Shown here: positions 12,612-33,373 of the stretch, piece after piece
Layout: each line of letters begins with the position of its first letter
Position numbering within the stretch: position 1 is the stretch's first letter
Assembly: GCA_023665935.1 (NCBI GenBank)
Contig: JAMPCZ010000012.1
Coordinates: 1-33,549 of the forward strand
Direction of reading: 5' to 3'
Source: Muribaculaceae bacterium
GTDB taxonomy: Bacteria > Cyanobacteriota > Vampirovibrionia > Gastranaerophilales > Gastranaerophilaceae
Length of the DNA: 33,549 nt
Notes under the pieces: model-generated
What the model saw: the letters and a program-made list of their open reading frames with translations, nothing else
Told to the model about the DNA's origin: nothing
The model's database searches: none
Made by a program: the position numbers and the translations under genes

Positions 12612-13211
12612 ATGAGAATTGCACCGGTTTCTTTAAATCAACAGAAATCACAATCTTTTGGTACTCTACATTTTGAATTGGATAAACCATCAAAACAACT
12701 ATATTACGACATGTGTAAGGAGCAAGGTTATAGCGAGTCATGGACTCTTGAATGTATAGGCGGGCTGAATAAAATCATTGCAGATATGGACGAAAAAACC
12801 GATAAGCAAGTTCAATGGTTTTTGAACCAAAGTCCTGCAACCCGTTATTTGCTGGCTAAGGATGTATGGCCGGAAAAAACAGTGGTTCCGTTATCTGTCA
12901 GAAGGGTTCAGGCAGATGAAAATAATCAGGATTTGGTTGCGACTATTGACGGTCGATATTCTGTTACTGCTGAAGATATAGAAGATATGAAGCCTTACAC
13001 CCCTCAGCGCAGATATAATGATATGGATTACAGAGCATTTTTGTACAGATTACCGAAAGTCGACTTTATTATTGATGAATTAATCATTCCGCAGGTTTTA
13101 GAAAAACCTCTTTACGTAAAGGCTGCTAATGAATTTGCCGAACGTGCGGATATGGATGATGAAACTAAGGTAAAAGATATTCGTAAAGATATCAATGAAT
13201 GGCTAGGCTAG
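12612..13211 (+). CDS. hypothetical protein with N-terminal SFG motif
   Basis: No family is recognised. The 199-residue product starts MRIAPVSLNQQKSQSFGTLH, so F16 lies in a Ser-Phe-Gly motif after a polar leader, as in several other hypothetical proteins here. It has no membrane segment. The body is charged and mixed helix/strand, with YDMCKEQGYSESWTLECIGG near residue 35 and an acidic/basic C-terminus ending DINEWLG. The start at 12612 is supported by AGGAG at 12599-12603. TATAAT at 12570-12575 could be its -10, and a terminator-like structure follows. It stands alone, divergent from the transporter operon. Confidence 0.82.
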   Translation: MRIAPVSLNQQKSQSFGTLHFELDKPSKQLYYDMCKEQGYSESWTLECIGGLNKIIADMDEKTDKQVQWFLNQSPATRYLLAKDVWPEKTVVPLSVRRVQADENNQDLVATIDGRYSVTAEDIEDMKPYTPQRRYNDMDYRAFLYRLPKVDFIIDELIIPQVLEKPLYVKAANEFAERADMDDETKVKDIRKDINEWLG

Positions 13212-19037: not shown

Positions 19038-19120
19038 GTTAACCTCGCTTGTAAGATTTTAATACAAAAAGGCAAAAAATAAAATTCACGTGTATTAATA
19101 CAATGAAGGGAAAATTACGT

Positions 19121-19552
19121 ATGAAAATTTATTCGACTAAGCCGGTATCATTTGGGATGAAGATTCCTGTAAAAACTGCGATAGAAGCTGCAAGCGGCAG
19201 ATTTTTAAGAGATGCAAAAATTGCGCACCCTGCTCAATTGGATTTGTTATCAAAATTGGGTTCAATAGATGTCCGCCAGTTGTACTTAGGTGAAGTAGCG
19301 GATGGTTTGCGAAACATGTCGCATTTGATTCGTGCCCGTCATCCGGAAGTAGCTTCGGCAGCCGAGAGAATTAATAAAGAATGCGATATTATAAATCAGG
19401 ATAGAACATTTTTACCTGAAAGTGAAGAAATCATAAAAAAGCAAATATCTCAAATGTTAAACGGAGAAGCTAAAAAAATCGGTAAAAAGTTTATTGATAT
19501 AAGTTCAATGACCTTGGAAGAGTTAGGATTAGATAAATATGCAAATTTATAG
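19121..19552 (+). CDS. hypothetical protein with N-terminal VSFG motif
   Basis: The 143-residue protein starts MKIYSTKPVSFGMKIP, with F11 in the Ser-Phe-Gly motif seen in other hypothetical proteins of this window. I chose ATG 19121 over 19103 because AAGGGA at 19107-19112 has ideal spacing to it and TACAAT (a possible -10) overlaps the earlier ATG. The body is helical, with HLIRARHPEVASAAERINKE near 70-90 and a Leu/Ile-rich end. There is no membrane segment and no known family. Its last 14 bases overlap the next gene, so translation is probably coupled. Confidence 0.78.
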   Translation: MKIYSTKPVSFGMKIPVKTAIEAASGRFLRDAKIAHPAQLDLLSKLGSIDVRQLYLGEVADGLRNMSHLIRARHPEVASAAERINKECDIINQDRTFLPESEEIIKKQISQMLNGEAKKIGKKFIDISSMTLEELGLDKYANL

Positions 19553-24105: not shown

Positions 24106-24693
24106 ATGAATAATAATATATCTTTCCAATCCCGAATAAGAATAATCGGCAGTGATGCTTTTATGCAAAAGGTTACCAAGCGCAGACCGAGAAGTGTTGA
24201 TTATCCGTGGACAATCCGTCAAACGGTTTTTGATACACAAGCTTCAACGACCAAAGTTTACGATTGTACTGCAATGGGAATTAATGACGGTGAGAATGTT
24301 TTGTTATTTCATATTTGTCCGACAGAACCAAGAAATAAAAACCTGGATAAAATAAAAGAATTTGTAACAGCAAGCATTAAAGAAAAACTTAATCCGCAAG
24401 CTTTGCAAGGTTTTATACTCGGAGGAAAAAAGAATAATATAAACAGTCCGAAAAGTATTAATTTATTTTGTTTCCTGGAAGATATACTGAAAGAGTTAAA
24501 TATTCCGTATTCAAAATTCAAAGGCGGAGAGTTTGAAAATCATGTTTATTATAATTCAACGACGGATGAATGGCTGATAGGCAATTCGTTATTAGATGAT
24601 GTGCCTAACTCCGTTTTTGGTTCTCCTAAAAATGCCTTAAATAAAATTTTTGATGAGGTGAATATTGCTCAATGTGATGAGGTAACTTGGTAG
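24106..24693 (+). CDS. hypothetical protein with ISFQS motif and CheD-like residue pattern
   Basis: No family is assigned with confidence. The 195 residues start MNNNISFQSR (F7 motif). The middle resembles the CheD/CNF1-type deamidase layout: a Cys in VYDCTAMG (C54), a His 15 residues later in LLFHICP (H69; CheD has 17), then FILGGKK (G106-G107), a Ser/Asn-containing loop, LKELNIPYSKFKGG (G140-G141) and the strand VYYNSTTDEWLI. All are in the order and spacing expected for CheD. Alternatively this is chance convergence. Divergent from birA; AGAAG lies next to the ATG. Confidence 0.7.
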   Translation: MNNNISFQSRIRIIGSDAFMQKVTKRRPRSVDYPWTIRQTVFDTQASTTKVYDCTAMGINDGENVLLFHICPTEPRNKNLDKIKEFVTASIKEKLNPQALQGFILGGKKNNINSPKSINLFCFLEDILKELNIPYSKFKGGEFENHVYYNSTTDEWLIGNSLLDDVPNSVFGSPKNALNKIFDEVNIAQCDEVTW

Positions 24694-29970: not shown

Positions 29971-31644
29971 TTAGCCGTGAATCATCTTATAGCCTGTGAA
30001 ATTACTCAGGTCTTTTTTAGCTGCAGCAAAAGTTGAAATTTGTGCAGGATTTTTTGCTTCATTTTGAGCTTTTGCGGCTTCCTGTTTTGCCATACGGCGT
30101 TTAGTTAAGAAAATGTTTAGTTTTGGAATACCGACACCAAGAACAATTCCTGAGTAAGCATAACCCGCAAGCTGCGCGATAGTTAAGAATTTAAGTTGTT
30201 TTCTTGCTGCGTGGTTTTTCGGCAATTCCTTAATCATTTCTCTGATTGTCAAAGCTTCTTTTCCGTTGTTTCTGAAAGCTTTAGCACCCAACGCACTGTG
30301 TAAAACTTCTGATCTGGTTTTTAATGTAGAATTTTGAAGCCAGTTCAGAATTCCTTTACCGTTGTTACGGATAAGAGATTTATCTAAACGCTGGGCAACA
30401 AGTTTTTGAACAAAATTACCCAAGATTAACCAGTTTGCAAACCCAAGAGTATCCTTGATTGTGCATTCTTTTAATTCGTTATCGTTTCTTGAAGATAAGA
30501 ATCTTGACATAATGGTTATACCATAGATAAACTTGAATTGTTTAAGAGTTGGAGAATAATCTTTGTATTGAATGGCTTTAATCAAAAGTTTTGGATTTTT
30601 GATTAGTTTAAGCGGGTTTTCGATTGTGGATAGAACTCCGGCTCCGAATAATGCCGCAACAAGTCCTTTTTTAGCCTTGAATTTTGCTGATTTATCTTCT
30701 TCTCCACCGCCTACAAAACCGCTTTCTCCGGTTTTTAATTTTGTCAGGTACATATTAAGCGGCTGCGCTGAAACTCCGACAGCAGATGCAACACCGACAC
30801 CGATAAGTGAACGGTTTTTATTCATTGATTTTAGTGATTTTAAGAATGCGTTTTCCAAATAGTTTGAAGTCTTTTCAAAAGTTTCTTTAACTTTTGGTCT
30901 TGTGAATATTTTTGGAAGTTTATAAGCATTATCTACGATATAATCAATAGAATATGTTGAAGGGATTTCAGGTGAACCTTGCGGAACTTTTATTTTAAAC
31001 TTATCAGAAATTCCCTCTACAGATGATGCCAAAATGTTTTGGACATTTTCAGCAGCTTTTTTATTGATTTTCTTAGAGTCTGAGTTGATTTCGTTTTGTA
31101 ATATTTCTACTGCTTTATCAATTGCTTCAGGAGAGAAACTCAAGGTTCTTCCGTTCGGAGCTTCTACGTGATATTGACCCAATGTTCTTCTTAAATGGGT
31201 TTCTATCGGATTAGCTTCTTTTGATGCTTCTGTAAAAATTTTACCTTGCAAATCAACGGTTTCGGCATCTGCGAATATAGAACTTGCTTTGATGTCGTTC
31301 TTTGTTAATCCGTAGGCTCCGTTTAGTGCTGTTGCTAAAGCAAGACCTGCACCTGCACCGTAAAGACCTACAGAAGAGTGGTTTGCGGTGCCCAAACCTT
31401 CTCTGCGCATAGTTTCAAAACCGGCATTGGCTCCGCGTCCGAAATCTGTTACGGTTCTAGGCAATACCATGAAACCTAAGTCAACGGCACAAGCTCCCCA
31501 GGCTTGGTTTGTATCAAAAAAGTTCAAAACTGCAGTCGGGCTTACCCCTGTAAAACTTGTGGATTGTTTTGCCGGTTTTGAAATTTCGTTTTTTGCATAT
31601 TGAGGTTTAATTTGTCTAATCTTAATGTCGTTTTCTAATTTCAT
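29971..31644 (-). CDS. large hypothetical protein with SFTG motif, paralogue of the next gene
   Basis: The 557-residue protein has a 30-residue polar leader and then SFTGVSP with F31-T32-G33. Hydrophobic segments near 90-113, 280-300, 328-340 and 505-530 suggest membrane association. It shares ordered blocks with the 33373 protein: VDLGFMVLPR (54-63), GFETMRREG (75-83), AQPLN (293-297), SRFLSSRNDNELKECTIKD (380-398) and a C-terminal LGVGIPKLNIFLTKRRMAKQ. No known family. Starts 28 bases after its paralogue, so probably one operon. Weak AAAGG lies upstream. Confidence 0.82.
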   Translation of the reverse strand: MKLENDIKIRQIKPQYAKNEISKPAKQSTSFTGVSPTAVLNFFDTNQAWGACAVDLGFMVLPRTVTDFGRGANAGFETMRREGLGTANHSSVGLYGAGAGLALATALNGAYGLTKNDIKASSIFADAETVDLQGKIFTEASKEANPIETHLRRTLGQYHVEAPNGRTLSFSPEAIDKAVEILQNEINSDSKKINKKAAENVQNILASSVEGISDKFKIKVPQGSPEIPSTYSIDYIVDNAYKLPKIFTRPKVKETFEKTSNYLENAFLKSLKSMNKNRSLIGVGVASAVGVSAQPLNMYLTKLKTGESGFVGGGEEDKSAKFKAKKGLVAALFGAGVLSTIENPLKLIKNPKLLIKAIQYKDYSPTLKQFKFIYGITIMSRFLSSRNDNELKECTIKDTLGFANWLILGNFVQKLVAQRLDKSLIRNNGKGILNWLQNSTLKTRSEVLHSALGAKAFRNNGKEALTIREMIKELPKNHAARKQLKFLTIAQLAGYAYSGIVLGVGIPKLNIFLTKRRMAKQEAAKAQNEAKNPAQISTFAAAKKDLSNFTGYKMIHG

Positions 31645-31672
31645 TTTATTTTATTGCCTTTATATTTCTATT

Positions 31673-33373
31673 CTAACTGAAAAATGGTTTAAATACTTCC
31701 GAATTTTGTTTTATTAAGTTTTGTGTAAACGAGCCGCCGAATGGTTGCTGCTGGGCTAACTTTTCCTGAAGTCTTTTTTCCTTTTTGTTAGACTGGGTTC
31801 TTGTGTATATTGGGATAAATACTCCAAGTGAAAGAAGTGAGAATGCTAAGTTGCCAAGCTGGCAAATTGCCCTTAGATTTCTGGCTTTCATATGGGTTGC
31901 TTCGTTTGCTATAGCACTTAATTCATCAGTTGATTTAATTTTTGTATGTTTAGCCCAATGCCATAGTTTCTGTAGTATATTAGCATTTTCTTTCTTTGGA
32001 GTCAAAGTGTTAAGTAATTTTATGCCGTCTTTATTATGTTTTTCCAAATATGTTGCGATACCTTTTGCTGCGTAATCCCCTAAGAAATAGAAACTTGAGA
32101 ATGTTGCGATATCGCGGATAGTGCTTTCTGTAAGTTCGTTTCCATCTTCTGAGGCTGCAAGTCTGCTTGAGAAGGTTGCAGCAGAAATGAGTCTTGCCTG
32201 ATCCATAGTAGGGAAGATGTTTTTGAATTGGAACATCTTAAGACTTGGTCTGTCCATTAGCATTGACAATCCTGCAGTTGCCCACATCAGAGGTACTGCA
32301 ACAAATTTCTTTGCTGTTAGATTTTTCTTTTCTTCAGGTGTTAAAACTCTTTCCTTGTCATCATTATAAATAGGAGCACCTTTTTTACCTGCAACTTTGT
32401 GTGTAATCCATCTGTTGATAGGCTGTGCTGCAATTGCTAAAGGTATGATTATTCCGAGCCCTGTAATACTTTTCCAGTTAACAAGTTTTTTCGCTTTTGA
32501 TATATATTTGCTAAGATCAACGTGTTGACCTTGTTCGGTAATAAGACCTTCTTTGTGCGCCCCGTGAAGAATATCCCCTGCGCTTTCGCAAAGATGGCTC
32601 AAGCTGCTTGAGAAGAATTTTTCTTCACCGTTGAATCTAATATTTTCTGCAATACCGCTGTTTTTAACCAAATATCTGTACAAATCTGAGGCATAACCCT
32701 CTTTTGGTTTGTCGCTCAGAATCTGTTGTGACATTTTTCTTAGAGCTTTGTTGTACTCTTTGTTGCCTGCAAAAATATCGCTGAATTTTTTTAATCCGCC
32801 GTTTGAGATATCGCCATCAACACCTTCAATATTATCAAACATTGATTTCAGGGTGTTGAAGACACGTTCTTCTTTTGTAGCTCCTGTCGCTTGGTTAAAA
32901 TACGAATTTACTTTATCTATCGCATCACTGTTTGCCCAGCTTTTAGCAAGATTAGACTTGTTGAACAGTCCCATTATCGGTCTGTGTAAAAGTTTAGCTG
33001 CACCGTATACTACATAACTCGGTATTATACAGTTAATTAAAAGTCCAGAACCTTCACGTCTTAAAGCTTCAAAACCTCCGATAAAGTTCAATTTTCTTTT
33101 TGGTTTTTCTTGTGTTTCAGTATTCTTATCTTCTTTTTTTGAGCCGATAACTGTTTCAAATATTGATCTAGGAACAATTGCGGTTGATAAATCAAGTACA
33201 GCAACGTTAATCATCGGAGATTCTTCGCATTTTTGAATCCCTTTAACCGCCGCCGCGCCGAGTTTTTGTCCAAGCCCGGTGAAATTTGGCTGCCCCATAT
33301 TACGCGCAACATCGTGCTGCTTTTGGGGTTTGTTATTTATATTTACACTACCTAATTCAACTTTATTTATCAT
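31673..33373 (-). CDS. large hypothetical protein with NFTG motif, paralogue of the previous gene
   Basis: The 566-residue protein starts with a 30-residue polar leader and then PNFTGLGQKLG, F31-T32-G33. Ordered similarity to its neighbour: VLDLSTAIVPR (59-69), GFEALRREG (100-108), AQPIN (316-320), SRLAASEDGNELTESTIRD (403-421), ending LGVFIPIYTRTQSNKKEKR. Hydrophobic stretches occur near 110-126, 303-316 and 358-372. The function is unknown. No clear ribosome-binding site lies before the ATG, so the start may be leader-dependent. Confidence 0.82.
   Translation of the reverse strand: MINKVELGSVNINNKPQKQHDVARNMGQPNFTGLGQKLGAAAVKGIQKCEESPMINVAVLDLSTAIVPRSIFETVIGSKKEDKNTETQEKPKRKLNFIGGFEALRREGSGLLINCIIPSYVVYGAAKLLHRPIMGLFNKSNLAKSWANSDAIDKVNSYFNQATGATKEERVFNTLKSMFDNIEGVDGDISNGGLKKFSDIFAGNKEYNKALRKMSQQILSDKPKEGYASDLYRYLVKNSGIAENIRFNGEEKFFSSSLSHLCESAGDILHGAHKEGLITEQGQHVDLSKYISKAKKLVNWKSITGLGIIIPLAIAAQPINRWITHKVAGKKGAPIYNDDKERVLTPEEKKNLTAKKFVAVPLMWATAGLSMLMDRPSLKMFQFKNIFPTMDQARLISAATFSSRLAASEDGNELTESTIRDIATFSSFYFLGDYAAKGIATYLEKHNKDGIKLLNTLTPKKENANILQKLWHWAKHTKIKSTDELSAIANEATHMKARNLRAICQLGNLAFSLLSLGVFIPIYTRTQSNKKEKRLQEKLAQQQPFGGSFTQNLIKQNSEVFKPFFS

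What the first reader, a model, noticed from the sequence alone, without database searches (positions are those of the whole stretch)
29971..33373. Undescribed paralogous family of about 560-residue proteins in tandem
The two proteins share blocks in the same order: PR preceded by VxDL, GFExxRREG, AQPxN, SRxxxSxxxNELxExTIxD and a basic C-terminal tail after LGVxIP. Both carry F31-T32-G33. They diverge elsewhere and have several hydrophobic segments. The conserved charged block (R, NEL, E, TI, D) suggests a functional site. I recognise no domain.
Basis: partly seen in the sequence, partly recalled or inferred. Interest (0 to 1): 0.6.

Follow-up and report, generated by a model that had tools for sequence, protein, structure and literature searches.

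The report
Tagged two-unit paired protein family
Two neighbouring genes of a gut-dwelling non-photosynthetic relative of cyanobacteria encode a protein family with no known relatives, made of two copies of one helical unit and marked with a short "FxG" tag that unrelated enzymes of these bacteria also carry, which hints at an undescribed protein-sorting code.

Summary
The two ORFs (A 557 aa, B 566 aa) are homologous (BLASTP E 6e-18). They belong to a family absent from Pfam, NCBIfam, PADLOC and PDB. It is widespread in Melainabacteria (Gastranaerophilales and two further families of the class), was not found in any oxygenic cyanobacterium sampled, and has up to about 13 profile matches per genome. 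B-A is a conserved tandem pair (57 of 61 genomes holding both). Function is inferred: a marginally hydrophobic, membrane-associated A/B pair positioned by a docking or sorting tag. Export by a flagellin-less type III-like apparatus found in these genomes is a live rival. AlphaFold models were too poor to reveal a fold.

The parts
31673..33373 (-). Protein B (566 aa), first gene of the tandem pair
29971..31644 (-). Protein A (557 aa), second gene of the tandem pair, 28 bases downstream of B
33275..33283 (-). B: N-terminal tag F31-T32-G33 after a polar variable tail
31546..31554 (-). A: N-terminal tag F31-T32-G33 after a polar variable tail
29992..30000 (-). A: second, C-terminal F549-T550-G551 in the variable C-tail, conserved in the A clade (19 of 21 tails; shuffled mean 3.3)
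31285..31527 (-). A unit 1, front part (res 40-120): hydrophobic helix, PR, GFExxRREG, hydrophobic helix
   Evidence: homologous to res 362-440: hhalign score 24.9 against a best of 11.7 in 100 column shuffles
30709..30861 (-). A unit 1, back part (res 262-312): hydrophobic helix ending AQPLNMYLTKLKTG
   Evidence: homologous to res 475-530: score 34.8 against a best of 15.2 in shuffles
30325..30561 (-). A unit 2, front part (res 362-440): SRFLSSRNDNELKECTIKDTLGF block
30055..30222 (-). A unit 2, back part (res 475-530): hydrophobic helix ending VGIPKLNIFLTKRRMAK

Best explanation
A and B are paired members of a Melainabacteria-specific superfamily. The building block is a short disordered polar tail ending in a linear tag F-[TKGNQS]-[GSA], followed by a helical unit with marginally hydrophobic helices and a conserved charged signature ([P/G/S]R ... 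E-x3-R-[E/D]-x2-G ... N-x2-[LF]-T-x-K). Each protein holds two homologous units, probably a fusion of two separate genes. Those parts are shown. Inferred: (i) B and A work together, as a heteromer or an obligatory couple, at or in the membrane; (ii) the FxG tag is a short linear docking or sorting motif read by a common receptor, which brings these proteins and some soluble enzymes (a second adenylate kinase, AAA ATPases, an acyltransferase and others) to the same place. The receptor, the place and the chemistry are not known.
For: Homology and family. Pair adjacent and same order in 57 of 61 genomes, gaps 25-341 bases; A and B clades each include families f1, f6 and f7, so the duplication predates those families. 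Internal duplication; unit 2 of the third paralog matches both the N-half (prob 98.7) and the C-half (98.3) of the family. Separate-gene form with a tag on each half. Tag: F in 57 of 58 diverse members, G in 50 of 57; a second copy at the C-terminus of the A clade; internal copy before unit 2 in the third paralog. Tag on unrelated proteins: 24/1053 non-family N-termini against 24/4993 interior windows in three Gastranaerophilales genomes, no clear excess in two controls, 9/606 against 32/3357; association with M[KNRQH][IV] starts, pooled p = 7e-4; tagged second Adk in 3 genomes, housekeeping Adk untagged; domains of tagged proteins. Hydropathy: six family-average segments of 1.07-1.48, between the soluble and the true transmembrane controls.
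Against: No experiment. AlphaFold models are poor (mean pLDDT 49 and 45), so fold and membrane topology are unknown; A has no segment above KD 1.6. The genome-wide tag excess is modest (about 2% of ORFs, ORF starts not verified), and one of the three genomes (G081) is weakly significant on its own. An A-B interaction is inferred from gene order only.
Confidence: 0.45

Rival explanations
1. The polar N-tail plus FxG tag is an export signal for a type III-like apparatus; A and B are exported proteins that insert into a membrane outside the cytoplasm, and the tagged second adenylate kinase and other enzymes are exported as well.
For: An FlhA/SctV-type export gate occurs in 111 of 117 relatives and in every family-bearing genome of that set, while the six genomes without it also lack the family. 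Genus g1 keeps a FliE-FliF/SctJ-like, FliH/SctL-like, FHIPEP cluster, yet 45 of its 46 genomes lack flagellin, so the machine must export something else or be a remnant. Tails are short, polar, N/Q/K-rich and lack a Sec signal; the helices are only marginally hydrophobic. A tagged ORF lies directly beside the FHIPEP gene in G022.
Against: FxG also occurs at the C-terminus and internally (96-98), which an N-terminal export signal does not need; tagged AAA and FtsH-like proteins make more sense inside the cell; families f10-f12 have the export gate but no family member was found; no secretin or needle was looked for.
Confidence: 0.3
2. Ordinary polytopic membrane protein pair (transporter-like, pseudo-twofold), with the tag merely a structural cap or assembly motif within the family.
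For: Internal duplication, six hydrophobic segments with positively charged ends, conserved charged residues in both units.
Against: Hydropathy is weaker than in the membrane proteins of the same window; it does not explain the tag on unrelated soluble enzymes.
Confidence: 0.17
3. The tag on unrelated proteins is a compositional accident of N-rich starts in AT-rich genomes; only the family-internal FxG is real.
For: Excess over shuffled N-termini is about two-fold with a loose regex.
Against: Family-trained PSSM excess over interior windows; independent association with M-x-[IV] starts; tag on the second Adk copies of three genomes, with a clearly different tail in the third.
Confidence: 0.08

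Closest known systems
Any Pfam / NCBIfam / PADLOC / PDB family
   Same: none at meaningful significance
   Different: no match for A or B, for 28 family members singly, for the split N-halves, or for profiles against PDB
Type III secretion substrates (signal type)
   Same: short polar unstructured N-tail without Sec signal; an export gate is present in the genomes
   Different: a defined F-x-G motif that also occurs at C-termini and internally; export untested
Short linear docking motifs / cargo-loading peptides in general
   Same: short conserved motif in disordered tails, found on unrelated proteins, sometimes at both ends of a chain
   Different: receptor unknown; no shell or scaffold protein was searched for or identified
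Internally duplicated membrane proteins (general architecture)
   Same: two homologous hydrophobic units in one chain, separate genes in some relatives
   Different: marginal hydrophobicity, no sequence relation to any of them found

Membership tests
   BLASTP E 6e-18 (7); family alignment with 17 invariant columns
Known curated family (Pfam, NCBIfam) | match above the curated cut-off | tested here: not met
Family with a solved structure | profile match in PDB sequences | tested here: not met
   best E 0.08-0.5
Known fold | confident structural match | tested here: inconclusive
   models of pLDDT 49 and 45; Foldseek found no hit with E below 0.8
Type III secretion substrate | export apparatus present in the genome | tested here: met
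   FHIPEP gate in all family-bearing relatives of the set; FliE, FliF/SctJ-like and FliH/SctL-like genes beside it in G022
Type III secretion substrate | secretion dependent on that apparatus | not testable with these tools
   needs experiment
Integral polytopic membrane protein | clear transmembrane segments (KD19 at least 1.6) | tested here: inconclusive
   A 0, B 2, family mean 1.6 segments
Anti-phage defence protein | PADLOC match | tested here: not met

The most novel reading that the evidence does not exclude
The F-x-G tag is a class-wide protein-sorting code of Melainabacteria: a receptor, possibly a flagellin-less type III-like export machine retained in non-flagellated gut species, recognises it and delivers a repertoire of tagged proteins, including the duplicated-unit A/B family and duplicated metabolic enzymes such as adenylate kinase.
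Probability: 0.25. Interest if true: 0.85.

Novelty: categorically new. Interest (0 to 1): 0.58.

Why it matters
Gastranaerophilales live in human and animal guts, are almost entirely uncultured, and are the non-photosynthetic relatives of cyanobacteria. An abundant lineage-restricted family with no known relative, carrying a linear tag shared with unrelated enzymes, points to a cell-biological system (a sorting site or an export route) that nobody appears to have described. It gives simple handles, the tag and the A/B pair, to test it.

Tried and rejected
Conserved link to ATP synthase: the pair lies convergent to atpG in many Gastranaerophilaceae but not in L062 or in f6 genomes, so it is neighbourhood, not function. 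Phage or defence origin: no viral contigs or phage hit, no PADLOC hit. A crude FxG regex over all N-termini showed no clear signal until a family-trained PSSM and an association test were used. Direct hhalign of split N-halves against split C-halves was not significant; the repeat rests. The start-codon DNA pattern was too unspecific to use.

Full report
What was checked. F31-T32-G33 is at identical positions in both, though that exact coincidence is particular to this genome: across members the tag sits at residue 8-48.

Where it comes from. The window is contig C33 of a 2.0-Mb assembly. Named relatives of A are MAGs of uncultured bacteria, one titled Candidatus Melainabacteria. Size and composition fit Gastranaerophilales as described in PMC4040986.

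Family. Single-sequence searches found A in 86 and B in 84 of 117 relatives. A profile of 28 members found the family in 205 of 289 genomes of the class, including families f9 and f15 outside the order at E 1e-11 to 1e-26. In the phylum-wide sample all matches were in the window's own order, and none of the sampled genomes outside the class matched. Genomes hold usually 2-5 matches and up to 13. No Pfam, NCBIfam, PADLOC or PDB relative was found.

The pair. In 61 genomes with clear A and B orthologues, the two are adjacent in the order B-A in 57, gaps 25-341 bases. The tree puts members from f1, f6 and f7 in both the A and the B clade, so the tandem duplication is older than those families. 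The atp operon next door is convergent and not a constant neighbour. Another subfamily (C) lies beside a GDSL-type hydrolase in several genomes.

Internal repeat. The N-half signature E77-x3-R81-E82-x2-G85 and the C-half E393-x3-K397-D398-x2-G401 match in pattern, as do AQPLNMYLTK and IPKLNIFLTK. hhalign on cut family alignments gave score 24.9 for the front parts (best of 100 column shuffles 11.7) and 34.8 for the back parts (best shuffle 15.2), while all cross-comparisons were nil. The third paralog settles it: in the window's own genome (L263 1507-3063) the two halves align directly with each other (score 68, 0 of 300 shuffles reach it), and its unit 2 matches both the N-half (prob 98.7, E 4e-16) and the C-half (98.3, E 2e-14) of the A/B family. 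Its unit 1 is closest to the C-half and unit 2 to the N-half, so the order of units is swapped relative to A/B. The third-paralog profile rests on only four sequences.

Split genes. In f9 and f15 many members are two adjacent genes, an N-half of about 470-560 aa and a C-half of about 200-315 aa. Profiles of these match the corresponding halves of the fused family (prob 99.6 and 99.3), and each half starts with its own tail and [RKV]F-x-G-like tag. The unit with its own tag is therefore the evolutionary module; independent fusions in both orders are the simplest reading (inference).

The tag. In 58 diverse full-length members F is present in 57, followed by T/K/G and G (50 of 57), after a tail that is otherwise unalignable. 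Complete A-clade proteins carry a second FT[GS] near the C-terminus (19 of 21 tails; shuffled mean 3.3), and the C subfamily mostly has FKS there. The third paralog has an internal SFKG/PFKG before unit 2. Outside the family, a PSSM trained on the family finds 24 of 1053 N-termini above threshold 9 against 24 of 4993 interior windows in three Gastranaerophilales samples, and 9 of 606 against 32 of 3357 in two controls. Proteins starting M[KNRQH][IV] have the motif more often (18/77 against 95/976, p 7e-4), with none in the controls. Clear cases are a second adenylate kinase in G022, G026 and G009 (housekeeping copies untagged), an AAA ATPase, an FtsH-like AAA-M41 protein, a metallophosphoesterase, an acyltransferase, an amidohydrolase, a CheR-type methyltransferase and an HNH protein.

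Membrane or not. Family-averaged hydropathy shows six segments of 1.07-1.48 on the KD scale, between soluble proteins and the membrane proteins of the same window. AlphaFold with the permitted shallow alignment was unusable. 'Membrane-associated' is an inference.

Export lead. A divergent FlhA/SctV-type gate is present in all family-bearing relatives of the 117-genome set. In G022 and G051 it sits in a cluster of FliE-like, FliF/SctJ-like, unknown, FliH/SctL-like and FHIPEP genes (the G051 neighbours were read by eye), and its FHIPEP protein falls below both the FlhA and the SctV curated cut-offs. 45 of 46 genomes of the window's genus lack flagellin. PMC4040986 reports that most Gastranaerophilales have only a subset of flagellar genes. 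Whether tagged proteins use this machine is untested; the tags at C-termini and inside chains speak against a simple N-terminal signal. The held library has no description of either the tag or a type III system in this group.

Verdict. Shown: real family, conserved pair, internal duplication, split-gene relatives, conserved terminal tag, the tag on a second Adk. Inferred: docking or sorting function of the tag, A/B cooperation, membrane association. Unknown: fold, receptor, chemistry. 'Categorically new' refers to the absence of any detectable known relative; a fold from a good model could still tie it to a known superfamily.

Noticed in passing
G022:C1 203690-209578 (L155 3690-9578); G051:C11 295080-301066; G000:C163:5892-7868 (gate only): Flagellar-like/type III-like cluster (FliE, FliF/SctJ-like, unknown 333 aa, FliH/SctL-like, divergent FlhA/SctV) in genomes of which nearly all in the genus lack flagellin: a candidate undescribed non-flagellar export apparatus of Gastranaerophilales.
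   Followed up: partly
L164 18885-19655, L259 1042-1767, L261 284-1066: Second adenylate kinase copy with an N-terminal FxG-tagged tail in three genomes; the housekeeping copy has no such tag.
   Followed up: partly
window 12612-13211 (+), 19103-19552 (+), 24106-24693 (+): Other window ORFs without a Pfam match that start with tag-like tails (QSFGTL, VSFGMK, ISFQSR).
   Followed up: no
L263 1507-3063 (G000:C97): Third, remote paralog in the same genome with the two units in swapped order and an internal PFKG tag.
   Followed up: partly
L077, L080, L081, L082, L084: Subfamily C of the family lies beside a GDSL/SGNH hydrolase gene in both f1 and f6 genomes, possibly an operon.
   Followed up: no
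G000:C63:2003-2413: The only flagellin N-domain hit in the window's genus is in the window's own assembly, which is 5.3% contaminated; possibly a foreign contig.
   Followed up: no
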